Shown here: positions 1 to 10,527 of the stretch, piece by piece
Numbering within the stretch: the stretch's first letter is position 1
How the letters are laid out: each line of letters starts with the position of its first letter
Source: Pseudomonadota bacterium
Lineage (GTDB): Bacteria; SAR324; XYD2-FULL-50-16; JAHJRI01
Assembly (NCBI GenBank): GCA_022360105.1
Contig: JAKSDL010000539.1
Location: 1 to 10,527, forward strand
DNA: 10,527 nt
Reading direction: 5' to 3'
Notes under the pieces: model-generated
What the model was told of the DNA's origin: nothing
The model's input: only the letters and a program-made list of their open reading frames with translations
The model's database searches: none
Position numbers and translations under genes: made by a program

Positions 1-732
1 GGCAAAGGAGATTTTTGAATCTTCCCCCACTGCACTGCTGCGCACGGCAAATCGGATGTTTTCCCCAAAAGAGCTTTGCAGGTTGCCAAGAGCATCCTGG
101 ATTGCGATTCCAACTTCTTCCGGGATTTCGGCGTTTTGTATTAACTGCGAAATGGCATTGAACGCATTTTTTAATGATTTTAGGGATTTAAGATCAAGAT
201 CCGCCAGAAACGAGTTAATCGGCTTTCGCAACTTGTTCAGTTCAAAAAACCGATGGTAAGCACGGGTGGTTACGACAAATCCTTCCGGGATCGGTAAGCC
301 CAAAGCTGTTTTCACGGTTGACAGGTTATAGGCTTTACCGCCGACCAACTCCCCGTTTTCTGCAGTAATGTTTTCCGGCAACAAAACATAAGGAGGATTG
401 CAGTTAACAACCGGCGTTGACAGCATGAGTCGAATGTAATCGTCAAATTTCTTGAAATAGTCGGCCAGATTGCCGTAACGAACGGGAGACAGGGTTAAAA
501 GATCAGCGATAACCTGGGAAACGCATGCGGACAACTGCAAATACGTTTTTTCAATGGCTGCTGTATCAACCTGCAAACGGTTGTGATAAATTTCCTCCAG
601 CTGGGCGATCAGAAGATGAGCCTGTTTATCGTTTTCCAAAAGGGATTTGAAAGCCCGGTATTGTTTTTGTAGGTATGTACCGGGGAAAAACAACTGATTG
701 AACCAATAGCTGACCAGTTTTCTGAAATGCAT
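1..732 (-). CDS. PEP synthase / pyruvate phosphate dikinase-like protein, N-terminal part (cut by window edge)
   Basis: The visible 244 residues start at an ATG (732-730) and run off the left edge in an open frame. Residues 1 to about 118 are a mostly helical extension without a motif I recognise. From about residue 119 the PEP/pyruvate-binding (ATP-grasp-like) domain of PEP synthase and pyruvate phosphate dikinase begins. It shows VGGKAYNLS at 130-138, PEGFVVTTRAY at 149-159 and VRSSAVGEDS at 230-239, the last being the nucleotide-binding Arg-Ser-Ser segment of the family. Enzymes of this family interconvert pyruvate and PEP with ATP through a phosphohistidine, but that histidine domain lies outside the window, so activity cannot be judged. 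The extension is unusual, since classical PpsA begins close to the GGK motif. The gene follows the flavoprotein gene by 23 bp on the same strand, so it is probably the last visible gene of the molybdoenzyme operon. The ribosome site is weak (AGG about 10 nt upstream). The family call is firm; the exact substrate is unknown. Confidence 0.85.
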   Translation of the reverse strand, partial: MHFRKLVSYWFNQLFFPGTYLQKQYRAFKSLLENDKQAHLLIAQLEEIYHNRLQVDTAAIEKTYLQLSACVSQVIADLLTLSPVRYGNLADYFKKFDDYIRLMLSTPVVNCNPPYVLLPENITAENGELVGGKAYNLSTVKTALGLPIPEGFVVTTRAYHRFFELNKLRKPINSFLADLDLKSLKSLKNAFNAISQLIQNAEIPEEVGIAIQDALGNLQSSFGENIRFAVRSSAVGEDSKISFA

Positions 733-755: not shown

Positions 756-2708
756 TTAGCAGTTTATACCAAATAACTCGGCGGATTTAGCCTTAGCGCA
801 GTCGGGACAAAGCCTTAAATGATTGTGCTGCAAAAAGCCTGATTGTTCCAGTTTGCCTTGGATGTATCCCAGGTAGTCCTCGGTACCCAAGGGGATATCA
901 CAAGAAGCACAGGTCTCCATTTTTTTACGGTTAAGTTCCGTACCACACAACGATAATACCCGCTCTCCCTGGTCATCCGTTATATCCATGGCCCCTGTGG
1001 GACAGTTCTCCGCGCAGGCTCCACAAGCGATACATTTTTTCTTTGTGATCTCCAGATCGGTGCGGGTGACGTTTTCCGGATCAAGATAACCCAATTGCAA
1101 GGCTTCTACACCCATTTTGTTCGTGCAGATATCCACACAGGTACCACAGCGACTGCAGATATCGCAACGGAGGCACCGCAATGCTTCTTTTTGGGCCGTT
1201 GCTTCGTCATATCCCAACTCGACCATGTCAAAACTGTTTTTCCGTCGAGGCATGTCCAGCAAAGGCATGACAGGTTTTTTCAATTTGGTTTTTTCTGCAG
1301 AGGAGACGGGCGCAAGCTCGATACGACTTTTGTGGATGAGTCCAGATGCCGTGGTCTCTGTCATCGTATCGGAAAGATACCTGTCGATGGATTCTGCTGC
1401 CCGCCTGCCGCCTGCAATGGCTTCGATAACAGTCGCCGGTCCGGTAACTGCATCACCGGCAGCAAATACGCCCTGTACCGAAGATTCCCCTGTTTTGTCA
1501 TTAACCCTGATGGTTCCCCAGGCGGTTAGGTCCAACTCTTCCATATGCGAAAGACACTGGTAATCAACTTTTTGTCCGATAGCTGCGATCACGGTATCAA
1601 CATCGATGCAGTGATTGCTGCCCTCGATGGGAACAGGAGATTTACGTTTACGCCCGGGTGTTTCTACCAATTCGGCTTTGACGCATTCCAAGGCTGATAA
1701 CGATCCATCTTTACCCTGGACGCAAACAGGAATCGTCAGATAACAAAACTTGATACCTTCCTGTTCCGCATGTTCTATTTCCTCGTCGTCTGCCGGCATC
1801 TCCTCTCGTGAGCGACGATAAGCAATGGTCACATCTTCGCTGCCAAGCCTGAGCGCCGTTCTGGCCGCATCGATTGCCACATTCCCGCCACCAATAACCA
1901 CCACTTTGTTGCCCAGGGAGCGCTTGATCCCCAAGGCCGTGTCTTTTAAAAGCCGGATAGCGTCCATCACCCCGGAATAGTCGCATTCCCCTTTGATACC
2001 CATATCCATAGCCTTGTGGGCACCAATTGCCAAAAAGATTGCCGCATAACCATCCGTTTTCAATTGTTCAAGATTAATGTCCCGTCCAAACGTTGTGTTA
2101 TAAACAAATTCGACACCCAATTGCTCCAGCATGGCGACTTCGCGTTTGATAACTTCCATAGGCAGCCGATAGCGGGGAATGCCGACGGTGATCATTCCTC
2201 CCGGTTCGGGCAGCGACTCTAAGACTTGAACCTGGTACCCGTTCAGGGCCAGGTAGTAGGCAGCGCTCAACCCGCCCGGACCGGAACCGACCACACATAC
2301 TTTTTTGTTTTTGTCTGGCTGTTTCTCGGGATTTTTGTAAGAACCCTTAGCCATGACTTGTTCAGCCAGGAATCCTTTTAAGGACTTGATAGCGATCGGT
2401 GTATCCATATAACCACGGACGCAGCTAAACTCACATGGTCGCGTGCAAACCAGTCCGCACACCCAGGGGAAGGGATTCGTCTCCCGAATAATACTGATAG
2501 CCTCTTCATAACGACCCAGCGCAGTCAAAGCCACATAAGCCGGTACATCGATCCCTGCCGGACAGGCTGTCTGGCAGGGAGCCAGGAAATCGTCCCCTGT
2601 TTCCGATTCGGGAGGGAATGGTTTTTTAGGCTCAATTGTCTTCAGATCGGCGTCAAACGTTGAGCGAACCGCCGTAAACGGTCGGTTGTCGGTACTTGTT
2701 TTTCTCAT
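756..2708 (-). CDS. GltD/NfnL-like FAD-dependent NAD(P) oxidoreductase with C-terminal Fe-S clusters
   Basis: A 650-residue flavoprotein if started at the ATG (2708-2706). An upstream TTG (2735) would add nine residues, and neither start has a clear ribosome site. The order is as follows. A Cys-rich N-terminal Fe-S domain of the GltD/dihydropyrimidine dehydrogenase type has Cys at about 45, 49, 84, 88, 92 and 96. An FAD-binding VVGSGPGGLSAAYYL lies at 139-153. An NAD(P)-binding VVVIGGGNVAIDAAR lies at 269-283, followed by RRSREEMPA, typical of NADPH-using members. The second FAD motif, GVFAAGDAVTGPATVIEAI, lies near 413-431. A dicluster ferredoxin-like part follows, with Cys at 512, 515, 518, 521, 524 and 528 and with CIACGACAENCP at 559-570. 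Last comes a CxxC (600-603) and CxxC (634-637) tail that could be a zinc ribbon. In this operon it probably moves electrons between NAD(P)H and the ferredoxin subunit of the molybdoenzyme. It is not a glutamate synthase subunit, as no large subunit is nearby. Confidence 0.9.
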   Translation of the reverse strand: MRKTSTDNRPFTAVRSTFDADLKTIEPKKPFPPESETGDDFLAPCQTACPAGIDVPAYVALTALGRYEEAISIIRETNPFPWVCGLVCTRPCEFSCVRGYMDTPIAIKSLKGFLAEQVMAKGSYKNPEKQPDKNKKVCVVGSGPGGLSAAYYLALNGYQVQVLESLPEPGGMITVGIPRYRLPMEVIKREVAMLEQLGVEFVYNTTFGRDINLEQLKTDGYAAIFLAIGAHKAMDMGIKGECDYSGVMDAIRLLKDTALGIKRSLGNKVVVIGGGNVAIDAARTALRLGSEDVTIAYRRSREEMPADDEEIEHAEQEGIKFCYLTIPVCVQGKDGSLSALECVKAELVETPGRKRKSPVPIEGSNHCIDVDTVIAAIGQKVDYQCLSHMEELDLTAWGTIRVNDKTGESSVQGVFAAGDAVTGPATVIEAIAGGRRAAESIDRYLSDTMTETTASGLIHKSRIELAPVSSAEKTKLKKPVMPLLDMPRRKNSFDMVELGYDEATAQKEALRCLRCDICSRCGTCVDICTNKMGVEALQLGYLDPENVTRTDLEITKKKCIACGACAENCPTGAMDITDDQGERVLSLCGTELNRKKMETCASCDIPLGTEDYLGYIQGKLEQSGFLQHNHLRLCPDCAKAKSAELFGINC

Positions 2709-2738
2709 TGAAAGATTCAGGGTTAATCGATTCAAAAA

Positions 2739-3242
2739 CTATTCAAAGGTGGCAACAGCTTCCGCATGTCTCTCTTTTTTAAAATGGCCGGCATCTTCGG
2801 CAGCGCCAAAATGCAAACACTTGGTGATACATTTAGTGACACAAGCGGGTTTCAGGTCCTGGTCGACCCTATCCATGCAGAAATCGCACTTAACCACCTT
2901 GCCGGTTTCACCGTTCCACTGGGGAGATCCCCAGGGGCACCCCTTGATACATGATTTGCAACCGACGCAAAGTGAATCCTCAACATAAACAATGCCGTCT
3001 TCAGGCCGTTTTACCATAGCCCCGGTTGGACATACAGCGACACACCAGGGTTTTTCGCAATGATAACAAGGCATAAATACAAACGACATCCGAGGCAGGT
3101 TTCCAACCATCTTGGGACCCACCGGAATTAATCTGCTAAGGCGTGGTCCCACGGGAAGATTGTTTTTTGACTTGCAATGAACCTCACAACTATAGCAGCC
3201 AATGCAGCGCTTGCTATCTTGATCCAAACTGTATTTACTCAT
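2739..3242 (-). CDS. Four-cluster 4Fe-4S ferredoxin subunit of a molybdopterin oxidoreductase (DmsB/PhsB/FdhB-like)
   Basis: A 167-residue electron-transfer subunit with sixteen cysteines in the four-cluster layout of the DmsB/PhsB/PsrB/NrfC family. The groups are C13, C16, C19, C23; C59, C62, C67, C71; C92, C95, C98, C102; and C119, C122, C134, C138. The sequence CPWGSPQWN after the third group is characteristic of the family. There is no signal peptide and no C-terminal membrane helix, so it should be cytoplasmic, unlike FdnH-type subunits. The ATG start (3242-3240) is supported by a GGAG about 8-10 nt upstream. It lies 24 bp after the catalytic gene and 30 bp before the ATG of the flavoprotein gene (3 bp before the alternative TTG). 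The order suggests that it links the molybdenum subunit to the flavoprotein. The fold and role are sure; the partners are inferred from position. Confidence 0.95.
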   Translation of the reverse strand: MSKYSLDQDSKRCIGCYSCEVHCKSKNNLPVGPRLSRLIPVGPKMVGNLPRMSFVFMPCYHCEKPWCVAVCPTGAMVKRPEDGIVYVEDSLCVGCKSCIKGCPWGSPQWNGETGKVVKCDFCMDRVDQDLKPACVTKCITKCLHFGAAEDAGHFKKERHAEAVATFE

Positions 3243-3266
3243 GGTTTAATCTCCAAATAATAATCT

Positions 3267-5363
3267 CTAAGATGCCTTTTTTACCTGAACCATAGCCTCA
3301 AGCAGGGCAATACCGCCTCCTGCCGGATCGTAATGATAAAGCATTCCGGTCTCGAACCGATAATCGGAAAGCCCTTTGTTGTAGCCCCTGGTCTGCCAGG
3401 GCACTTTTCGACCAAATCCATGATCCATATACACAACTTCCGGATGGGTAAATTCGCTTACCCAGGCCTTGATTTTGCCGGAATGGGAACCATCCGCAGA
3501 GATAACTTCTACGGTATCATTGTTTTTGATGTTCAATTTTGCGGCTTCCTTGTCGTTGATCCAAAGATTGTTTTCCGACATGATTTCATTCAGATAGGGA
3601 TTGTTCTGGGTAGTACCATGAGTATGCACGGGACTTCTGCCAAAAGCTAAACGGAACATACCGTCTTTGGGTCTTATCGGGCTTTCATACGGTTTCAGGG
3701 AGGGAATTCCGCTCTCTTCAAACTTGCCGGAGATGATTTCGATTTTTCCCGATGGTGTTTTGAACTTCAAATCGTTCATCCGATCCCACCAGATCGGCTT
3801 GTCACAGAGGGTGACAAATCCTTTTTCTTTCAAATCGTCGATGCTGACGCCGGTATCTTCCAGTTGCCAGTTCCAGAATTCTTCGATGGAATCGAAATTG
3901 AGAAAATCCTTCATCCCCAATCTCTCCGCCAGGGATTTAAAAATCCACCAATCGCTTTTGGTCTCAGCTTGCGGTTCGACAGCCTGTTCCCGAATCTTAA
4001 AAGATGGTTTCAACCCTTTACCAACAGCCAGGGTAGAGGATCTTTCCAGGTAGGTTGCTGCCGGCAGAATCACATCGGAATACCAGGCCGTTTCGCTGTA
4101 GTTGGTCTCAATGGCAACTACCAGATCCAACTTATCAAAAGCTTTTTTCTGTTCCTCGGGATCGGGAAGGGAAAGCAGCGGATTGTGCCTGTAAATAATG
4201 TATCCTTTAACGGGATAGGGATCATCAGTCAGCAAGGCCTGGTAAAACAACTGCAGCAATCCCGGACCCGCATCAAAATGCTTGTATTTCCAGCCGCAAC
4301 CATCCACCCGTTTTTCCTCCGGTTTGGGAATGGTATCCAGCAAGGTCTTTAACCCTTTGCGCCCGGCATCCTTGGGGCCTTTTTGAAAAAACAGGCCGCC
4401 GGGTGCTTCCAAACTCCCCATCAAGGCATTCAGAATATAAGCGGTACGAGAGCTGTAAAAGGAATCCAGGTAGCGTGCTGTCATCCATCCCGGATGAAAT
4501 ATAACTGAGGGACTGTCCTCGGCTAATTCAAAAGCCAATCGTTTTAATTCTTCAGCCGGAATTTGGGTTTCCTTTTCCGCCCATTCCGGTGTGTAAGGTT
4601 GAACAAAAGCCTGAAGCTCGTCCAGCCCTTCAACCCACTTGCTGACAAACTCTTTGTCATATAGTTTTTCCTGCAAAATAATGTGAATCAGCCCCAGGTT
4701 AAAGGCGTAGTCCGTTCCCGGTCTGACTTGCAGAAAACGGGTAGCCTTCATAGCCGTACCGGAAGCCCTGACATCCAAATAGGTAATCTTCCCGCCACGA
4801 TCCAACATTTCCATGATAGTGCCGGCGTTTTTGACACGTAGCGACTCGAATACGTTTCTCCCGTATAAAACCAGGTGTTTGCACTGCTTGTAGTCGTAGT
4901 TAAAGGTTTTTCGACCTGATCCGAACAGGGAGAGAGCAGCGTGCTGGGTATTTCTGGCACAGGTGCAATCATGGTTGATATAGTTGGGTGAGCCTAAGGC
5001 CCTTAAAAAGCTTCGCTGAATATCCCTGAACGGACCGCCCCTGTCGCTCAGGGCAATGGCACGGGGTCCGTGTTTTTTGATGATGGTATTCATTTTTCCG
5101 GCTATATAATCAAGGGCTTCATCCCAACCGACCTCTCTCCAATTGCCTTCTCCACGCTTGCCCTCGCGCAACAGGGGGCGCCTGGGTCTCTCATAATCAT
5201 AAAGCATGGATATCCCTGCAGAACCTTTGGCACAAAGCCTGCCGGCCATACCCGCATCGTTTGGATTTCCTTCAATCCAGTCAACCACGCCGTTTTTAAC
5301 ATTCACTTTAATAGGGCATCGAACAGTACACATGCTGCAGATACTGTATACACTTTTATTCAT
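3267..5363 (-). CDS. Soluble molybdopterin oxidoreductase, PhsA/PsrA-like (DMSO reductase superfamily)
   Basis: A 698-residue catalytic subunit. The ATG at 5363-5361 is chosen because AGGAGGT (5379-5373) sits 9 nt upstream; an in-frame GTG at 5423 would add 20 residues that match nothing. The N-terminal 4Fe-4S motif is C9, C12, C16 and C44, followed by K46, the family's usual electron-relay lysine. GSPNYINHDCTCARN (124-138) is where the metal ligand is expected; C135, or less likely C133, would bind Mo or W, and no Sec codon is used. The C-terminal molybdopterin-binding domain has RSPVHTHGTTQNNPYL and a late HGFG motif. This resembles thiosulfate and polysulfide reductases more than formate dehydrogenases, which carry a Cys/Sec-His-Gly-Pro motif. 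There is no Tat signal and no NrfD/PsrC-type anchor gene follows, so the enzyme should be cytoplasmic. Candidate substrates include thiosulfate, polysulfide or an organic compound; the sequence does not decide. Confidence 0.9.
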   Translation of the reverse strand: MNKSVYSICSMCTVRCPIKVNVKNGVVDWIEGNPNDAGMAGRLCAKGSAGISMLYDYERPRRPLLREGKRGEGNWREVGWDEALDYIAGKMNTIIKKHGPRAIALSDRGGPFRDIQRSFLRALGSPNYINHDCTCARNTQHAALSLFGSGRKTFNYDYKQCKHLVLYGRNVFESLRVKNAGTIMEMLDRGGKITYLDVRASGTAMKATRFLQVRPGTDYAFNLGLIHIILQEKLYDKEFVSKWVEGLDELQAFVQPYTPEWAEKETQIPAEELKRLAFELAEDSPSVIFHPGWMTARYLDSFYSSRTAYILNALMGSLEAPGGLFFQKGPKDAGRKGLKTLLDTIPKPEEKRVDGCGWKYKHFDAGPGLLQLFYQALLTDDPYPVKGYIIYRHNPLLSLPDPEEQKKAFDKLDLVVAIETNYSETAWYSDVILPAATYLERSSTLAVGKGLKPSFKIREQAVEPQAETKSDWWIFKSLAERLGMKDFLNFDSIEEFWNWQLEDTGVSIDDLKEKGFVTLCDKPIWWDRMNDLKFKTPSGKIEIISGKFEESGIPSLKPYESPIRPKDGMFRLAFGRSPVHTHGTTQNNPYLNEIMSENNLWINDKEAAKLNIKNNDTVEVISADGSHSGKIKAWVSEFTHPEVVYMDHGFGRKVPWQTRGYNKGLSDYRFETGMLYHYDPAGGGIALLEAMVQVKKAS

Positions 5364-5372
5364 AGCTAATTT

Positions 5373-5379
5373 ACCTCCT
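5373..5379 (-). promoter_or_regulatory. Strong ribosome binding site that fixes the molybdoenzyme start
   Basis: Read on the minus strand this is AGGAGGT, nearly the full anti-16S complement, followed by 9 nt and ATG. It decides the start at 5363 over the GTG at 5423. Confidence 0.9.
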
Positions 5380-5473
5380 GATGGAAAAACAGGTCTTAAA
5401 AAATCGAATGTAGCTAACGCCACAGGAACGTTTTGGATGAAAAGGTGTGATTAGAAATCATTTGGTCATGTAG

Positions 5474-5596
5474 GACGGGTAACTTACCACCCGTCGATTT
5501 ATAGATGGGTAAGCAACAACATCTTTATGAATTGATACCTTTTGCCTGTTGATAATGTTTTCAACTGTCCGCCAAGCAGTTGCATGCTTACCCATC
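5474..5596 (-). ncRNA. Candidate structured leader RNA or palindromic element upstream of the molybdoenzyme operon
   Basis: Three nested or adjacent inverted repeats are visible. A perfect 12-bp pair has GATGGGTAAGCA at 5504-5515 and TGCTTACCCATC at 5585-5596. Inside it is a 6-bp hairpin, CAACTG (5562-5567) with CAGTTG (5577-5582) and a 9-nt loop. Beside it is a hairpin, GACGGGT (5474-5480) with ACCCGTC (5489-5495) and an 8-nt loop. If transcription starts at the sigma-54-like promoter around 5702-5718, all three lie in the 5' leader of the molybdoenzyme mRNA. No U-run follows the last hairpin on the minus strand, so it is not a plain intrinsic terminator. It matches no riboswitch consensus I know. 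The alternative is a REP-like mobile palindromic repeat: the plus strand reads GTAG just before the hairpin, as in REP sequences served by RAYT transposases. Confidence 0.45.
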
Positions 5597-5647
5597 CTAA
5601 CCTGAACAATATCTGCCATTGAGCAATTGGAGGACGGGCAGCCTGTT

Positions 5648-5675
5648 AGCAACCTGAAATTGAAAAAAAGTTGCT
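5648..5675 (-). other. Small hairpin at the expected start of the molybdoenzyme leader
   Basis: AGCAAC (5648-5653) and GTTGCT (5670-5675) form a 6-bp inverted repeat with a 16-nt A-rich loop (T-rich in the minus-strand RNA). It falls within the first about 45 nt of the leader predicted from the sigma-54-like promoter. Short stem, modest support. Confidence 0.25.
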
Positions 5676-5701
5676 GCTTAGCAGATGATCCTGACCTTTC
5701 A

Positions 5702-5718
5702 GCAAGTTCCATACCAGT
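5702..5718 (-). promoter_or_regulatory. Putative sigma-54 (-24/-12) promoter of the molybdoenzyme operon
   Basis: The minus strand reads ACTGGTATGGAACTTGCT in this stretch. The -24 element is CTGGTAT, with GG at 5715-5714. The -12 element is TTGCT, with GC at 5703-5702. The GG and GC are exactly 10 bp apart as required, and the site differs from the consensus YTGGCACGrNNNTTGCW at two positions. The predicted start is near 5690, giving a leader of about 325 nt. A match by eye, not tested. Confidence 0.6.
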
Positions 5719-5754
5719 GCAAATCGAAATCTCTGTACCTCCCCTTGTCACCGA

Positions 5755-6039
5755 TCATAACAAGAATTCTGTACCTTTTGATTCTTCATTGTTTCCCTTT
5801 TTTAAAATAAACACCCTGATCCAAAGATCCATAAAAACAAAAAGATAAATCGAAAAACTCAAAAAAAATTCGGCAGCAGAATCGAAGAACGTGAACCACA
5901 GCAACCAACACCAAGCCTTCATCATGATGAATTGAAAAAAACAAATAAGATCAACCGGTTTCATAGAAAAATAAGCTATCTCAGACCAGCACCTGATTCC
6001 TGAAAAACAACCGGGCGCTATAAAAATATTGCGGTGCAT
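5755..6039 (-). CDS. Doubtful small membrane-protein ORF in the divergent intergenic region
   Basis: A 94-codon ORF starting at ATG (6039-6037) with AAGGAG about 11 nt upstream. The product would be rich in Phe, Trp and Met, with two hydrophobic stretches (about residues 31-49 and 56-79) and a charged tail KKGNNEESKG. I recognise no family. The plus strand is very A-rich here, so the many Phe codons may only reflect composition. The frame stays open beyond its TGA stop (5757-5755) for another 98 codons to 5458, but that extension has no membrane character and overlaps the candidate promoter and the leader hairpins. Could be a real small inner-membrane protein, a relic, or chance. Confidence 0.3.
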   Translation of the reverse strand: MHRNIFIAPGCFSGIRCWSEIAYFSMKPVDLICFFQFIMMKAWCWLLWFTFFDSAAEFFLSFSIYLFVFMDLWIRVFILKKGNNEESKGTEFLL

Positions 6040-6104
6040 TAAAAAACTTGCTCCTTATTAACTGGCAGAAATATCAGGAGAAAAATAAGTCGGATACAAC
6101 AGCC

Positions 6105-6144
6105 TGCAATTATTTTATTGCAATTGTTCAGTGAAATTGAGCAA
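6105..6144 (+). promoter_or_regulatory. Dyad cluster, possible activator binding site for the sigma-54-like promoter
   Basis: Two overlapping inverted repeats: TGCAAT (6105-6110) with ATTGCA (6117-6122), and TTGCAATT (6118-6125) with AATTGAGCAA (6135-6144, one extra base in the right arm). They sit about 150-185 bp upstream of the predicted transcription start near 6292, the usual distance for an enhancer-binding protein of the NtrC family. The role is inferred from symmetry and spacing only. Confidence 0.35.
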
Positions 6145-6234
6145 AGCGATAAAAATTAATGATGGGCCCGATTTTGGATAATTCATGACCGGCACCCTAA
6201 AAAAGTCAATAAACAAAGCCAGTTAACCTGTTTC

Positions 6235-6293
6235 GCAGGCCTCGTTTTTAGACAAAATTTTGCAATGGCATATCCGTTGCTGATAAGGCCTGC
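6235..6293. repeat. 8-bp inverted repeat enclosing the plus-strand sigma-54-like promoter
   Basis: GCAGGCCT (6235-6242) and AGGCCTGC (6286-6293) are perfect inverted copies, 43 bp apart, with the -24/-12 promoter between them. The right arm covers the predicted start site (about 6292). Could be a repressor operator pair, or chance. Confidence 0.35.
6265..6281 (+). promoter_or_regulatory. Putative sigma-54 (-24/-12) promoter of the TauE/SafE operon
   Basis: ATGGCATATCCGTTGCT carries TGGCA at 6266-6270 and TTGCT at 6277-6281. The invariant GG (6267-6268) and GC (6279-6280) are exactly 10 bp apart. The predicted start is near 6292, giving a leader of about 180 nt before the ATG at 6473. The NtrB-type kinase further down the same cluster fits sigma-54 control. 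Confidence 0.6.
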
Positions 6294-6345
6294 TTAACCA
6301 AACGATCAATAATTTTTGTGTTTGGAACTCAGGATATACCCGGGT

Positions 6346-6440
6346 ATTCCGGCATACAGTAATTTTCGGAATTCCGGGGAAATTGAGATATTGTTAGTAA
6401 AAGTAGGGGTAGAGGCAGTTAGGCGTTTAACACGGCGCCT
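6346..6440 (+). other. Small hairpins in the TauE leader
   Basis: ATTCCG (6346-6351) pairs with CGGAAT (6367-6372), and AGGCG (6421-6425) pairs with CGCCT (6436-6440), the second ending 19 nt before the ribosome site. Neither is followed by a T-run. They are recorded as possible leader structure; no known riboswitch is recognised. Confidence 0.2.
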
Positions 6441-6472
6441 CTTCCTTCAATTCAATTATGGAGACAAACGTT

Positions 6473-8131
6473 ATGCGTAACAAATTCATTCTATCTGTCT
6501 TTCTGGCATTGACAGGTCTTTTTTTGATGTCGGTTTCAGTTGCAACGGCTGCAACGGAGATTTCCAATACATCTCCGGAAGCCGGTGCCAAGTTTGAGAT
6601 CAAAGGACAGGTAAATCCGGGGGAGGATTTATTTATCGTTGTTTCTTCTGCAGATCTTTTTAAGGCCTCGGATTCGAGCGGCTCCAAGGAAAAAGCCACT
6701 TTGCAGGAAAAGTTTGGTGATACCGAAATTCCACCTGTTTATTACGTCATCACCAGTGCACCGGAAAAGCTGGCTACACCAAAGGTTGTAAGCAAGGGAC
6801 GCTGGTTTCCTCCCTTTAAGTGGGATATGGAGGTGAACAAAATCAACGAGTGGAGTTCCATCCCTGATGATACCCGCGGCAAACTGGGTCCCATCGGCAA
6901 TCAGAAGCAATGGGAATACTTGATCTATACCCATGAAGATAAATTCGGAATCAACACCGTGACCAAAGAACGACCCATCGGCGGCGGAAACGCCAGAATG
7001 ATTATGAGCGGTGATAATTCAAAATCCTGGAATAAGGACGTGTCTCTGAGCCTTGACAAAGCGACCGGTGAATTCGCTGCATCGTTTATGTTGGGAAAAC
7101 GTATCCCGCCCGACACCGGCATGAATGTGTATGTTAATGGTGCTGAAGCGGGAAAAATTGCTGTTCAAAAACGCGGATTTTTCTTCAGAATCGGCGGAAC
7201 CTATATGAATCCGCTGGTGGTTTTCCTGGGCGCTTTTTTAATCGGTATGATGTTTGTGATTGTGGGAGCGGCCGGTGGTTTGTTTACAGCTGCTTTCCAG
7301 ATTACCATAGTCGGAACCAACGGTATGGTTGGTGTAAACGCCGCCAATGCGGTTAAACCGACTAATCTTTTCCTGACACTCTGTTCTCCGATCACCGGTG
7401 TTTATACCTACTTTAAGGAAGGTCGGCTGGCCTGGCCGGTAGCTTTGTTTTTCGTAGGCGGTATCCTGTTGGGTGCCTTTTGGATTGGCCCCACCTATTC
7501 AGCCAAGTATCTGCCGATGAAAGCCTACAAGTTCTATCTCGGCTTTTTCTGTCTGATCCTTTTTATCAAACTCTGGCTGGAATCTACCAAAGGCGCTATC
7601 GAAAAGAAAAAAGCGGTTAAAAAAATCGTTCAGAAATTCGACGCGGAAGTAAAACAGGCCAAAGAGGAAGGTCGGGCTGCTCAATTCGGCAAAGTGGAGA
7701 TCTCCAAGGGCTGGTCATTGAACAAGATCGATTTCAAGTTTTGGGGAGAGAGTTTTAAAGCCAACCCGATTGCGCTGTTCCTGGGCGGGATCATTATCGG
7801 TTGTATCGCCTCCGCTTTTGGCGTGGGCGGCGGCTTTATGCTGGTACCCTTTATGACTACAATCATGGGCTATCCTATGTACCTGGCCGTTCCGATTTCC
7901 CTGGTAGGTACTTTCGGAACTTCAATTGGCGGAATCTCCCGCTACATTATGAACGGCTATCAGCCGGATTGGATCATGGCCGGATTGATTGCCGCCGGAG
8001 CTATTTTAGGCGGAAAGGTCGGACCGATGATTCAGAAAAAACTCCCTGAAATCTTTTTGAAAAGGGCGTTGGCTTTAATTCTGTTTATCGTTTTCCTCAA
8101 TTACACACAAGCATTGCCTTTCCTCAGATAG
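6473..8131 (+). CDS. TauE/SafE family permease with signal peptide and large periplasmic domain
   Basis: A 552-residue membrane transporter. The ATG at 6473 is preferred over one at 6458, because GGAG (6460-6463) overlaps the first ATG and is 9 nt from the second, and because MRNKFILSVFLALTG then begins a normal signal peptide ending near VATA (residues 23-26). Residues 27 to about 243 form an exported domain without recognised motifs, rich in Trp, Lys and Gly. The TauE/SafE part follows, with paired glycine-rich repeats: IVGAAGGLFTAAF at 263-275 and FGVGGGFMLVPF at 449-460. Several hydrophobic helices surround them, and a charged cytoplasmic loop runs from about 372 to 428. Typical TauE/SafE proteins are about 250-300 residues and are linked to export of sulfite, sulfoacetate or related anions. 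This protein is roughly twice that length because of the added domain and loop. It is divergent from the molybdoenzyme operon, which fits a sulfur-compound role, but the substrate is not shown. Confidence 0.85.
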   Translation: MRNKFILSVFLALTGLFLMSVSVATAATEISNTSPEAGAKFEIKGQVNPGEDLFIVVSSADLFKASDSSGSKEKATLQEKFGDTEIPPVYYVITSAPEKLATPKVVSKGRWFPPFKWDMEVNKINEWSSIPDDTRGKLGPIGNQKQWEYLIYTHEDKFGINTVTKERPIGGGNARMIMSGDNSKSWNKDVSLSLDKATGEFAASFMLGKRIPPDTGMNVYVNGAEAGKIAVQKRGFFFRIGGTYMNPLVVFLGAFLIGMMFVIVGAAGGLFTAAFQITIVGTNGMVGVNAANAVKPTNLFLTLCSPITGVYTYFKEGRLAWPVALFFVGGILLGAFWIGPTYSAKYLPMKAYKFYLGFFCLILFIKLWLESTKGAIEKKKAVKKIVQKFDAEVKQAKEEGRAAQFGKVEISKGWSLNKIDFKFWGESFKANPIALFLGGIIIGCIASAFGVGGGFMLVPFMTTIMGYPMYLAVPISLVGTFGTSIGGISRYIMNGYQPDWIMAGLIAAGAILGGKVGPMIQKKLPEIFLKRALALILFIVFLNYTQALPFLR

Positions 8132-8212
8132 TTGACACCCCCCAATGCGCGGCGCCCGGCCCTTGTGCAATAGATATTAAGACATCAGGTGCCGTTCATT
8201 GGGTCAATTTTT
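8132..8212 (+). terminator. Two-part hairpin with T-run after the TauE gene (terminator or attenuator)
   Basis: The outer arms are CCCAATG (8141-8147) with CATTGGG (8197-8203), extended by TTGAC (8132-8136) with GTCAA (8203-8207), sharing one base at the junction. The inner arms are CGGCGCC (8150-8156) with GGTGCCG (8188-8194), including one G-T pair, closing a 31-nt loop. Five T follow (8208-8212). The long loop is unusual for a simple terminator, so it may be an attenuator that lowers expression of the downstream genes, or an RNA processing site. Confidence 0.5.
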
Positions 8213-8262
8213 AAAATCCCCTTTAACATTTTGGTTAACGTGTCATCGGGGACTTTATCTAT

Positions 8263-8907
8263 ATGCCGGTTTATATGGATACTATTATTGAAGTTACAGA
8301 CAGTCTGTTTGACGGAATCTATCATATTCTTATAGACCCTTTGCTGGCAGGTATTGCTTTTTTATTGAACCTGGTTTTTTCACCGTTGGCTTTTTTTCCA
8401 CCGGTCATCCAGGTAGGTTTCATTGCAGTTATCGCCGCCGCTGTTTCTATTCTGTTATCCCGACGCTTCCGTTCCAAAAGGGAAAAAACCTTGCGAAAGG
8501 AGTTTCAAAAAAGACTGGCCTCACTCAAAACAACATCAGCCATTGACGACAAACCTACAGAAAAAATCGTTCGACGAGGCATTAATCAGCAAGCTGATAA
8601 AATCTACGAGAAGTTGATCCTGGATAAATTCAGCGAAATGGGTATCAGCTATTTCTTTCCTCTGTTCTTTTTCCTGATCTGGATCGAATATGATCTGCTT
8701 TCTCCCGAAAAGCTGGAACTCTTAACCGGATCATCCTTTATTCTGCTGACAGAATCAGGGACGCAGGTTTCTGCTGCTTACCTGTTTATTTGGTTTTTCA
8801 GCGGGTTGCTGCTCACCTTTTATCTTTTAAGCGCCGGTTTGCGATTCATGGCAAATCGCGGTATTTTCAGGAAAAAGAACAAAACAAACAAAATGATCGC
8901 CTCGTGA
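8263..8907 (+). CDS. Membrane protein resembling the YidC/EMC3 (DUF106) superfamily
   Basis: A 214-residue protein starting at ATG 8263, with a modest GGGGA ribosome site about 10 nt upstream. Hydrophobic segments lie at about 23-45, 48-66, 127-142 and 168-190. A basic, coiled-coil-like cytoplasmic stretch between them (about 67-125) contains RRFRSKREKTLRKEFQKRL. A helix, a charged helical hairpin and then more helices is the plan of archaeal DUF106 and eukaryotic EMC3/TMCO1 proteins, relatives of the YidC/Oxa1 insertase. That family promotes insertion of membrane proteins. No diagnostic residue is conserved clearly enough to be sure by eye, so the assignment rests on architecture. It may help fold or assemble the neighbouring permease or sensor proteins; this is speculative. 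It lies 131 bp after the TauE gene on the same strand. Confidence 0.5.
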   Translation: MPVYMDTIIEVTDSLFDGIYHILIDPLLAGIAFLLNLVFSPLAFFPPVIQVGFIAVIAAAVSILLSRRFRSKREKTLRKEFQKRLASLKTTSAIDDKPTEKIVRRGINQQADKIYEKLILDKFSEMGISYFFPLFFFLIWIEYDLLSPEKLELLTGSSFILLTESGTQVSAAYLFIWFFSGLLLTFYLLSAGLRFMANRGIFRKKNKTNKMIAS

Positions 8908-8964
8908 CTCATAAACATCATTAAGCTAAGCTGCAAAAGACCACATTGTAGAGGTGAACGCCCG

Positions 8965-8994
8965 ATGAACCTTCCATTTGAGGAAAAGCAGTAG
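8965..8994 (+). CDS. Nine-residue mini-ORF (MNLPFEEKQ) coupled to the next gene
   Basis: GAGGTGA (8951-8957) precedes ATG at 8965 with 7 nt spacing, a better ribosome site than that of the next gene. Nine sense codons run to TAG (8992-8994), which ends 2 nt before the ATG at 8997. Part of the mini-ORF (GAGGA, 8980-8984) may serve as ribosome site for the downstream gene. This is the layout of a translational coupling leader. Short enough to be chance. Confidence 0.35.
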   Translation: MNLPFEEKQ

Positions 8995-8996
8995 CC

Positions 8997-9494
8997 ATGT
9001 CCAATAGATTCAGAAGCTTGTTGCCAGCCTGTGTGGTTATCTTTCATTTGATATGGCTGCTGTTGCTTCCCTCCTTACTCTTTGCAACTCAAACCCACAA
9101 GGAACCGGAAGGACTCTTTGTGCATCAGGCCGCCCATATCTTTTTTATAATTTCAATGGGCATCTTCGCTTACAGGCTTAAAACCAGCGAATTAATCAAA
9201 CAAAAAGGATGGCGTTACATCAGGATAGCCGCCTTGCTTTTAGTTGCCTGGAATCTGGATGCATTCCTGGTTCATTTTCTGGATGAGCAGCTCTATGTGC
9301 TGCATATTGAAACGGTTGACAGGTTTCACATCAAGTTAACCACGATCGACGGTTACGGGTTCTTGGGGATTCTTTATTATATATTGAAACTCGATCATCT
9401 TTGGTGTGTGCCTGCCCTGGCTTTTCTCTTCCTGGGATTGAACAGACTCGCCAAAGAGATCGAGCTGCCCGACGAAAAAAAGGAGCAGCTATGA
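8997..9494 (+). CDS. Small multi-helix membrane protein of unknown family, partner of the sensor kinase
   Basis: A 165-residue protein I do not recognise. Hydrophobic segments lie at about 9-30, 40-60, 74-95, 120-133 and 135-149, so four or five helices are likely, with a charged C-terminus (IELPDEKKEQL). Histidines fall inside or at the edges of the helices: H43 and H47 (VHQAAH), H93, H103, H111 and H134. Such spacing is common in membrane proteins that bind heme, metals or quinones, but ligand binding is only an inference. The stop TGA (9492-9494) overlaps the ATG of the histidine kinase (ATGA), so the two are co-translated and probably act together. It could be a sensory or signal-relay subunit for the kinase. 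Confidence 0.65.
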   Translation: MSNRFRSLLPACVVIFHLIWLLLLPSLLFATQTHKEPEGLFVHQAAHIFFIISMGIFAYRLKTSELIKQKGWRYIRIAALLLVAWNLDAFLVHFLDEQLYVLHIETVDRFHIKLTTIDGYGFLGILYYILKLDHLWCVPALAFLFLGLNRLAKEIELPDEKKEQL

Positions 9495-10527
9495 TTGTTA
9501 ACTCCCTGCCCATCGTCCTGGTCGACCTTTTCGGTTCCATTGCCATGATCGTCCTTTCCCTCTTATCATTAAGTCTGGTCCATCGTATTAAGTCGAGAGA
9601 CCCGAACGGGGTAATTTGGAGGTACTTGCAGTGGGTTTGTATGTCGCTTACCTTGTTTGCGGTTTCCCGCTCGGCGGGTCATATCTTGAAACAATTCCTG
9701 GTTTTTTCGGAGCACGCCGATCTCTGGCAAAAAATCAGTCCCTTCAGCGGTGGATTCAACACCCTGATGTTTGTAGTAGTAGGATCTGTCACTTTGTTCT
9801 TTAATACGGTTTGGCGGATCTACCAGGAAATGGAAACGGACAAGGCCGCTTTGCAAACCGCTCACCTGGAGCTTGTCTATTTCAATCAACATTTGGAGGA
9901 CCAGGTCAAATTGCGGACCTCGGAACTAAGCCGTTCCGAAAGCAAATACCGGCGAATCTTCGAAATTTCCAGGGATGTGATCATGGTTACTTCCATCAAC
10001 GGGGAAATACTGGATTTGAATCCCGCCGGTTACAATGTTTTCAAGCTAACCCGAAATGCTTTGTTGCAAGGCGACATGAATATTCAATCGTTTTTTGCCG
10101 ATCAAAAAGACTGGGACAAGTTAAGCGCCATCCTGCAGAAAAAAGGATTTTTGTCGACCAGGGAAATGAGTCTGACCAGAACCGACGGGTCTTCCATGCT
10201 TTCGTTGATCAGTTGCAGCCTCAACGCAGAATCGGACGAGGCATCGCCTACCATTCATTACCTGATCAAGGATATCGAACAGAGACGACTGATTGACAAG
10301 CACATGATCCAGGCGGACAAGCTGGCTTCCATTGGTGAGTTCTCTGCGGGCATCGCCCACGAAATCAACAATCCGCTGGGCATTATTCTCGGCTATACGC
10401 AACTGCTGTTGCGCAATGAAAAAAACGACTCGGGGAAAGCCGAAGATCTAAAAATCATTGAAAAGCATGTGCAAAATTGCAAATCAATTGTCTCGGATTT
10501 GCTCAACTTTGCCCGCAGTTCCAAAAC
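9491..10527 (+). CDS. Membrane-bound PAS sensor histidine kinase, NtrB type (cut by window edge)
   Basis: The first 345 residues of a sensor kinase; the frame is open at the right edge. The ATG at 9491 has AGGAG 6 nt upstream and overlaps the previous stop by 4 nt. Hydrophobic helices lie at about 6-30, 44-64 and 88-110, with short external loops and no large periplasmic domain, so sensing is likely within the membrane or through the neighbouring membrane protein. A coiled-coil linker covers about 112-150, ending KLRTSELSRSESKYRRIFE. A PAS domain covers about 151-263, with NGEILDLNPAG at 170-180. The dimerisation/phosphoacceptor domain has H290 in AGIAHEINNPLGIILGYTQLL, the form found in NtrB-like kinases. 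The ATP-binding domain lies beyond the window. Such kinases usually act on sigma-54-dependent response regulators, which fits the sigma-54-like promoters here. The signal sensed is unknown. Confidence 0.95.
   Translation, partial: MIVNSLPIVLVDLFGSIAMIVLSLLSLSLVHRIKSRDPNGVIWRYLQWVCMSLTLFAVSRSAGHILKQFLVFSEHADLWQKISPFSGGFNTLMFVVVGSVTLFFNTVWRIYQEMETDKAALQTAHLELVYFNQHLEDQVKLRTSELSRSESKYRRIFEISRDVIMVTSINGEILDLNPAGYNVFKLTRNALLQGDMNIQSFFADQKDWDKLSAILQKKGFLSTREMSLTRTDGSSMLSLISCSLNAESDEASPTIHYLIKDIEQRRLIDKHMIQADKLASIGEFSAGIAHEINNPLGIILGYTQLLLRNEKNDSGKAEDLKIIEKHVQNCKSIVSDLLNFARSSK

What the first reader, a model, noticed from the sequence alone, without database searches (positions are those of the whole stretch)
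756..5363. Soluble PhsA/PsrA-like molybdoenzyme coupled to a GltD/NfnL-like flavoprotein instead of a membrane anchor
PhsA/PsrA-type enzymes normally carry a Tat signal and are anchored by a quinone-linked NrfD/PsrC subunit. Here the catalytic subunit begins MNKSVYSICSMC with no export signal, and no anchor gene lies in the operon. The next genes encode a four-cluster ferredoxin and an NAD(P)/FAD flavoprotein with additional clusters. This predicts a cytoplasmic NAD(P)H-linked complex, possibly reducing thiosulfate, polysulfide or an organic substrate, or a bifurcating enzyme if ferredoxin also takes part. The components are visible; the complex and substrate are inferred.
Basis: partly seen in the sequence, partly recalled or inferred. 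Interest (0 to 1): 0.7.

Follow-up and report, generated by a model that had tools for sequence, protein, structure and literature searches.

The report
Cytosolic sulfur molybdoenzyme with swappable electron module
This operon appears to encode a cell-interior relative of thiosulfate/polysulfide reductases that is wired to an NADPH-type flavoprotein instead of a membrane anchor, and in related bacteria the same enzyme pair sits beside other electron modules, including a complex I that lacks its NADH-binding part.

Summary
The three genes are real and read as described. The catalytic subunit (698 aa) starts behind a strong ribosome-binding site, has no export signal and no NrfD/PsrC gene beside it, and is followed by a 16-Cys ferredoxin and a GltD/NfnL-like flavoprotein. 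It belongs to a widespread clade: 101 of 395 sampled genomes of one phylum carry it. A mixture-model tree puts its 53 soluble members in one fully supported clade without the Tat-exported paralogs. NrfD was found near 5 of 150 soluble genes and 8 of 20 control paralogs. The catalytic-ferredoxin pair is the constant core; what follows varies: NADPH-type flavoproteins, NuoE/NuoF modules, or a complex I without NuoEFG (32 of 150). Complex I linkage needs at least four changes on the tree. A TauE/SafE-family gene lies near 68 of 150 (0 of 20 controls). Best reading: a cytosolic NAD(P)H-linked thiosulfate or sulfane-sulfur reductase; chemistry and direction are inferred. Bifurcation is not supported in the window itself. 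The complex I link was noted in one genome before (PMC5165239), and consecutive locus tags in a proteome paper fit it. My ten paper searches showed nothing on the module swap or the flavoprotein version.

The parts
3267..5363 (-). Catalytic subunit: soluble PhsA/PsrA-like bis-MGD molybdoenzyme, 698 aa, [4Fe-4S] ligands C9/C12/C16/C44, Mo-ligand cysteine C135 by alignment
   Evidence: AGGAGGT upstream of the ATG read
2739..3242 (-). Four-cluster ferredoxin subunit, 167 aa, DmsB/NrfC-like
   Evidence: 16 Cys in four quartets read in the translation
756..2735 (-). NAD(P)/FAD flavoprotein (GltD/NfnL type) with N-terminal Fer4_20, C-terminal 2x[4Fe-4S] and CxxC...CxxC tail; ATG start at 2708 gives 650 aa; YRR motif after the second nucleotide-binding loop
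1..732 (-). Context: start of a PPDK_N (pyruvate phosphate dikinase / PEP synthase type) gene, 23 bp behind the flavoprotein, cut by the window edge
6458..8131 (+). Context: divergent TauE/SafE-family transporter, 557 aa; related genes near 68 of 150 soluble-clade genes, the window counted
8263..8907 (+). Context: 214-aa membrane protein, EMC3/TMCO1-like match below the curated cut-off
8997..9494 (+). Context: 165-aa membrane protein with no Pfam or NCBIfam match; recurs beside the kinase (26 of 150 loci, the window counted)
9491..10525 (+). Context: PAS/HisKA sensor histidine kinase, cut by the window edge; related kinase near 43 of 150 loci, the window counted

Best explanation
The operon encodes a soluble three-subunit NAD(P)H:sulfur-compound oxidoreductase. 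NADPH (preferred by motif) reduces the FAD of the flavoprotein; electrons pass through its [4Fe-4S] clusters to the four-cluster ferredoxin subunit and on to the [4Fe-4S]/bis-MGD centre of the catalytic subunit. There a sulfane-bearing anion in the cytosol, most likely thiosulfate, is cleaved reductively to sulfide and sulfite. Sulfite would then go to the Dsr pathway or leave through the neighbouring TauE/SafE protein. In relatives the same catalytic-ferredoxin pair appears to exchange electrons with NuoE/NuoF-type modules or with a complex I that lacks its N module. Shown: the gene set, absence of signal and anchor, clade membership, variation of the module, neighbours. Inferred: the physical complex, NADPH, the substrate and the direction.
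For: Intact cofactor ligands and full-length similarity to 2vpw. The NCBIfam PhsA model is the best match (562.8 bits, below its 694 cut-off). No Tat, no anchor. A ferredoxin gene within 1.2 kb behind the catalytic gene in 123 of 150 loci. Labels of same-strand genes within 6.5 kb behind it (150 loci): complex I 34 (one, the upstream copy in L011, wrongly assigned; 32 by the stricter rule), flavoprotein 33, fused NuoF-GltD-like 16, NuoE plus NuoF 6, two-gene Nfn type 2, none 42, contig too short 17. YRR, read as NADP(H) preference in DsrL (PMC7596348, passages), in 53 of 61 flavoproteins; three of the eight misses are about 593 aa, the length of a NuoF alone. Sulfur context: dsrA in 96 of 101 genomes with the gene and 92 of 294 without (tables, counted; Fisher 4.5e-32, kinship not corrected); TauE-family gene near 68 of 150 loci against 0 of 20 controls. 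In Desulfolithobacter dissulfuricans PhsA-1, PhsB-1 and two Nuo subunits bear consecutive locus tags, and the two Nuo subunits were detected only under thiosulfate disproportionation (PMC9751629, passages).
Against: Nothing here shows activity. The PhsA cut-off is not reached, and some conserved positions differ from PsrA-type, exported and PhsA paralogs: R108 in 99% of the clade where the rows compared have H, Y or K. In D. dissulfuricans PhsA-1 and PhsB-1 occur in both conditions, PhsA-1 is only slightly more abundant under disproportionation, and the authors doubt a major role. 42 of 150 loci show no electron module of the kinds searched, 12 of them also no ferredoxin. TauE-family proteins have diverse substrates (recalled). 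The 20 controls are few and come from the same genomes; the label references are the window's own genes.
Confidence: 0.5

Rival explanations
1. Same complex, opposite direction: it oxidises a reduced sulfur species (sulfide, sulfane sulfur, or sulfide plus sulfite to thiosulfate) and hands electrons to NADP+, or in relatives to complex I and menaquinone with proton pumping.
For: Complex I in its usual direction would conserve energy; PMC5165239 (passages) leaves open oxidation or reduction for the Thermodesulfovibrio pair beside nuo genes.
Against: A two-electron thiosulfate potential near -0.4 V (recalled) makes NADPH-driven reduction at least as plausible. No sequence test run here separates the directions.
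Confidence: 0.2
2. Same architecture, different substrate: an oxyanion other than thiosulfate, formate, an aldehyde, or an organic sulfur compound.
For: Substrates of this superfamily cannot be read from sequence alone; matches after 2vpw include acetylene hydratase and formate dehydrogenases; a clade-specific residue.
Against: Nearest solved kin is a PsrA-type enzyme; co-occurrence with dsrA and with TauE-family genes.
Confidence: 0.2
3. An ordinary PhsAB whose NrfD-type anchor is encoded elsewhere in the genome.
For: NrfD genes exist in 31 of 32 genomes with the soluble gene; NrfD begins about 4 kb or less upstream in L030, L156, L170, L174, L183.
Against: No Tat signal upheld in the clade; paralogs with their own adjacent NrfD coexist in some of the same genomes, e.g. 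G023 and G029; soluble-clade profile scores are 653-1483 bits, the next class 480 or less; electron modules often follow the ferredoxin gene instead.
Confidence: 0.06
4. The window's own complex is electron-bifurcating.
For: The flavoprotein's best solved matches (9bov, 8oh5, and 9n5u named NfnA) are, as I recall, NADP-binding subunits of HydABC-like complexes; relatives carry NuoE/NuoF genes.
Against: The window encodes no NuoE, no FMN/NAD NuoF and no second flavoprotein; the BfuBC core that defines that family (PMC9304861, abstract and passages) is missing.
Confidence: 0.04

Closest known systems
PhsABC / PsrABC thiosulfate and polysulfide reductases (CISM family)
   Same: Catalytic and ferredoxin subunits are homologous; same aligned cysteine ligands.
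   Different: No Tat signal, no NrfD anchor gene, cytosolic by prediction; separate, fully supported clade.
Thermodesulfovibrio N1 THER_0567/0568 beside nuo genes (PMC5165239, passages)
   Same: A Psr-type A and B pair next to an 11-subunit complex I without NuoEFG; its authors suggest coupling to sulfur-compound oxidation or reduction.
   Different: One genome, no clade defined and no flavoprotein or NuoEF alternative in the passages seen. Whether these proteins fall in the present clade was not tested.
DsrL (PMC7596348, passages)
   Same: NAD(P)/FAD flavoprotein with N-terminal and C-terminal two-[4Fe-4S] domains feeding a sulfur enzyme; YRR motif.
   Different: Gene partner is a molybdoenzyme, not DsrAB; extra CxxC tail in the window protein; no dsrAB in the window.
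Bfu/HydABC family (PMC9304861, abstract and passages)
   Same: Some relatives carry NuoE, NuoF and NuoG-N-like genes plus GltD-like domains behind the catalytic pair.
   Different: Window lacks the BfuBC core; the words thiosulfate and polysulfide do not occur in the paper's main text.
Sulfide dehydrogenase SUDH / Nfn-type flavoproteins
   Same: Cytosolic NADPH-linked polysulfide reduction (as described in PMC5317093, passages); the flavoprotein kinship to Nfn-type proteins is recalled.
   Different: No molybdoenzyme is involved there (recalled).
MOLY cluster MolyABC (PMC12998232, passages)
   Same: PhsA-like AB pair in sulfur disproportionators without a membrane anchor.
   Different: Described there as exported with a TorD-type chaperone. 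Paralogs of that make-up here have Tat signals, one checked case has a PF02613 chaperone gene upstream (L089), and the two of that group on the tree fall outside the clade.

Membership tests
PhsABC/PsrABC | bis-MGD catalytic subunit with [4Fe-4S] and cysteine Mo ligand | tested here: met
   (by alignment)
PhsABC/PsrABC | four-cluster ferredoxin subunit | tested here: met
PhsABC/PsrABC | Tat export signal on the catalytic subunit | tested here: not met
   window: first cluster Cys at residue 9; clade: 1 automatic hit of 150, an over-long start, against 17 of 20 controls
PhsABC/PsrABC | NrfD/PsrC-type anchor gene in the operon | tested here: not met
   window; clade: 3 of 150 in the same-strand run. 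Cytochrome b anchors were not searched for in the other loci.
PhsABC/PsrABC | NCBIfam PhsA equivalog cut-off 694 bits | tested here: not met
   562.8 bits
PhsABC/PsrABC | thiosulfate or polysulfide reductase activity | not testable with these tools
   needs purified enzyme
DsrL | domain order Fer4_20, FAD/NAD(P), linker, 2x[4Fe-4S] | tested here: met
DsrL | organism has dsrAB and the protein serves DsrAB | tested here: inconclusive
   no dsr gene among the window products scanned; no whole genome held; dsrA in 96 of 101 genomes with the clade
DsrL | falls in the DsrL clade of a flavoprotein tree | not tested
   no DsrL reference sequence was fetched
Bfu electron-bifurcating family | BfuB (FMN, NuoF-like) and BfuC (NuoE-like) core | tested here: not met
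   absent from the window products scanned; present in loci such as L019
MOLY cluster | exported MolyAB with TorD-type chaperone gene | tested here: not met
   no signal and no such gene among the window products scanned

The most novel reading that the evidence does not exclude
This clade is an interchangeable cytosolic thiosulfate-reductase core that bacteria plug into whatever can supply low-potential electrons: an NADPH flavoprotein (the window), NuoEF-type bifurcating modules, or a complex I that has lost its NADH module and runs backwards, using the proton gradient to push menaquinol electrons onto thiosulfate. The last would supply a missing step of thiosulfate disproportionation, where electrons from sulfite oxidation are too weak to reduce thiosulfate unaided (potentials recalled).
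Probability: 0.3. Interest if true: 0.82.

Novelty: new variant of a known kind. Interest (0 to 1): 0.62.

Why it matters
Several sulfur bacteria have a complex I without NuoEFG and no known electron partner; [quoted passage not shown] The operons here offer one answer to both: PhsAB-like proteins that face the cytosol and are encoded with complex I, NADPH flavoproteins or NuoEF modules. They also warn that genes annotated as thiosulfate/polysulfide reductase chain A (the source's name on many hits) need not be the periplasmic, quinone-linked enzyme that the name implies, which changes energy budgets for sulfate reducers and disproportionators.

Tried and rejected
Rejected: anchored Phs/Psr (no signal, no anchor gene, separate clade); bifurcation in the window (no NuoE/NuoF); membership in the MOLY cluster. 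Led nowhere: AlphaFold model of the flavoprotein (mean pLDDT 56.8, 11-row alignment), so no fold search was run; Rfam scan of the window gave 0 matches; promoter scan of 5300-6500 found 2 sites against 3.2 in shuffles; a paper search on thiosulfate reductase with glutamate-synthase-like partners returned 0 papers.

Rows dropped or doubtful: L041 (26% identity) was not counted as a clade member; catalytic ORFs under 300 aa were dropped before counting and those under 600 aa before the trees; duplicates were merged by residues 100-400, giving 170 unique ORFs (150 clade, 20 controls). The 150 include the window; without it TauE, kinase, 165-aa and PPDK counts are 67, 42, 25 and 6 of 149. In one search the upstream catalytic gene of L011 was labelled complex I although the nuo genes follow the second copy; L163 is labelled flavoprotein although nuo-type labels lie upstream; L023, L177 and L200 hold a NuoF of about 593 aa, not the fused protein. 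Gene maps come from a simple ORF caller with BLAST labels from a small reference set, so modules unlike the references count as none, and NrfD was sought with ten references. NuoB and some other nuo labels were not checked by Pfam; NuoD or NuoH was in L016, L024, L030, L153, L170, L209 and L225. The 150 loci are not a random sample: they combine the window, a genome scan, second copies in 32 genomes and 101 genomes of one phylum. Fisher tests ignore kinship. In the dsrA count one genome (G362) with a weaker dsrA match was counted as lacking it.
Full report
What is there. The window holds a compact minus-strand operon: a 698-aa molybdopterin oxidoreductase (5363-3267), a 167-aa ferredoxin with four [4Fe-4S] quartets (3242-2739) and a 659/650-aa flavoprotein (2735 or 2708 to 756), followed after 23 bp by a PPDK_N gene that leaves the window. 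Divergently, on the plus strand, lie a TauE/SafE-family transporter, two small membrane proteins and a PAS/HisKA kinase. Pfam, NCBIfam and PDB comparisons agree on the families. The catalytic start has AGGAGGT nine bases upstream; the first cluster cysteine is residue 9, which leaves no room for a Tat signal.

A clade, not an oddity. A database search found 4029 proteins with E up to 0.001 among 7996 scored candidates; the 119 best others listed are 70-75% identical, and the N-termini printed begin at or near the cluster motif with a few longer or shorter called starts. A scan of genome contigs gave 41 loci, 40 of them at 45% identity or more. In 32 genomes behind these loci the profile separates 42 clade members (653-1483 bits) from the next class (480 bits or less). 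In 395 genomes of one phylum, 101 carry the gene at E up to 1e-180.

No signal, no anchor. Among 150 unique clade members the Tat test rang once (L156, an over-long start); among 20 control paralogs from the same genomes it rang 17 times. A looser test for a hydrophobic stretch before the cluster motif rang in 5 of 150: L097, L144, L152 and L156 have an ATG within about 10 residues of the motif, L004 a GTG 11 residues before it. NrfD genes exist in 31 of the 32 genomes, yet were found between 8 kb upstream and 10 kb downstream of only 5 of 150 clade members against 8 of 20 controls. Three of the five (L170, L174, L183) are in the same-strand run; in L170 it belongs to a cluster with an Hdr-like CCG protein, a multihaem cytochrome and a second ferredoxin.

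Tree. FastTree on 173 rows and IQ-TREE with a mixture model on 63 chosen rows, short search, both give one fully supported soluble clade. The Tat-exported and NrfD-linked paralogs sampled, and the PhsA of an E. coli plasmid, fall outside; PhsA is its sister there, on a long branch whose place is unsure.

A constant pair with swappable modules. The ferredoxin gene follows the catalytic gene within 1.2 kb in 123 of 150 loci. What else lies within 6.5 kb behind it varies. Labels: complex I 34 (one of them wrongly assigned), flavoprotein 33, fused NuoF-GltD-like 16, NuoE plus NuoF 6, two-gene Nfn type 2, none of these 42, contig ends too soon 17. Pfam confirms representative cases: L016 has NuoA, C, D, H, I, J, K, L and M behind the pair and, between A and C, a 119-aa ORF that reads like NuoB; NuoD or NuoH also in L024, L030, L153, L170, L209 and L225; L019 has NuoE, a NuoF-GltD fusion, a NuoG-N-like protein and a second NuoE and NuoF; L038 has a NuoG-N-like protein and an NADH_4Fe-4S/Fer4_20/Pyr_redox protein; L182 has a 1131-aa fusion. 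With a stricter rule 32 loci have nuoD within 4 kb, and none of them has a NuoE- or NuoF-labelled gene behind the pair in the stretch read. On the 63-row tree, complex I against the other modules needs four changes (last line); three are forced by starred branches in the group table. So the link arose or was lost repeatedly.

Which cofactor. The flavoprotein shows GGGNVAID...AYRR. A YRR motif is read as NADP(H) preference in DsrL (PMC7596348, passages). 53 of 61 flavoproteins in the clade's operons have it; three of the eight without it are about 593 aa, the length of a NuoF without a GltD part. In the window there is no NuoE, NuoF or second flavoprotein, so I expect plain NADPH-linked transfer and no bifurcation.

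Which substrate. Context points to sulfur: dsrA in 96 of 101 genomes with the gene and 92 of 294 without (tables, counted by script; kinship not corrected), a TauE-family gene near 68 of 150 loci and 0 of 20 controls, a related kinase near 43 of 150 and 0 of 20 (the window is one of the 150). The closest solved structure is of PsrA type. Against an easy name, the PhsA cut-off is missed and at least one position is clade-specific. Thiosulfate cleavage is my first choice because it is a low-potential two-electron reaction (near -0.4 V, recalled) that suits NADPH, bifurcating modules and a reversed complex I alike.

Literature, as far as seen. [quoted passage not shown] PMC9751629 (passages) lists PhsA-1 GF1_30490, PhsB-1 GF1_30500 and Nuo subunits GF1_30510 and GF1_30520 (NuoB), the latter two among proteins found only under thiosulfate disproportionation, while PhsA-1 and PhsB-1 occur in both conditions; it remarks that subunit C is missing and doubts a major role. 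That these four genes are neighbours is my reading of the consecutive tags; it matches the order seen here, e.g. in L010-L017. PMC12142623 (passages) asks for an unknown partner of its complex I without an N module; PMC4911364 (passages) describes another such complex. PMC7117923 (passages) lists PhsAB, NuoABCDHIJKLM and a TauE/SafE permease among transcripts of a shrimp epibiont. PMC12998232 (passages) defines the exported MOLY cluster. Passages of PMC8780430, PMC4046663, PMC3739170, PMC12724263 and PMC5317093 named thiosulfate reductases or complex I genes but not this arrangement. Ten paper searches (with listings, empty) showed no paper on the flavoprotein version or on module exchange; I read listings and passages only, and most subscription papers are not in that library.

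Verdict.

Noticed in passing
window 6458-10525: TauE/SafE transporter, a 165-aa membrane protein and a PAS/HisKA kinase recur around the clade (68, 26 and 43 of 150 loci, the window counted; 0 of 20 controls each), which suggests a dedicated transporter and sensor.
   Followed up: partly
window 1-732: A PPDK_N-domain gene follows the flavoprotein by 23 bp; related genes lie near 6 of 149 other loci (e.g. L025, L036, L038, L039, L147); controls 0 of 20, not significant.
   Followed up: partly
window 2708-2735: The flavoprotein lacks an N-terminal stretch of roughly 75-90 residues that the 712-721-aa homologs have, and there is no room for it between the two genes.
   Followed up: partly
L170, L174, L183: Directly upstream of the catalytic-ferredoxin-nuo operon sit a second ferredoxin and NrfD; in L170 also an Hdr-like CCG protein and a multihaem cytochrome: a possible larger membrane assembly.
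   Followed up: partly
L001:245-8913: Two soluble catalytic genes (73% and 46% identical to the window's) in tandem, each with its ferredoxin, followed by one NuoG-N-like protein and one flavoprotein.
   Followed up: no
L214, L215, L218, L219: Complex I operons with two different ferredoxin genes behind the catalytic gene.
   Followed up: no
L036, L039, L147, L222 and others: A sub-clade whose ferredoxin (about 150 aa) overlaps the catalytic gene by a few bases and has no electron module of the searched kinds nearby.
   Followed up: no
L089:8470-11314: Tat-exported PhsA-like paralog with a PF02613 (NarJ/TorD-type) chaperone gene just upstream, as described for the MOLY cluster of sulfur disproportionators.
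   Followed up: partly
window 5504-5515 and 5585-5596: A perfect 12-nt inverted repeat with 69 nt between the arms in the intergenic region upstream of the operon.
   Followed up: no
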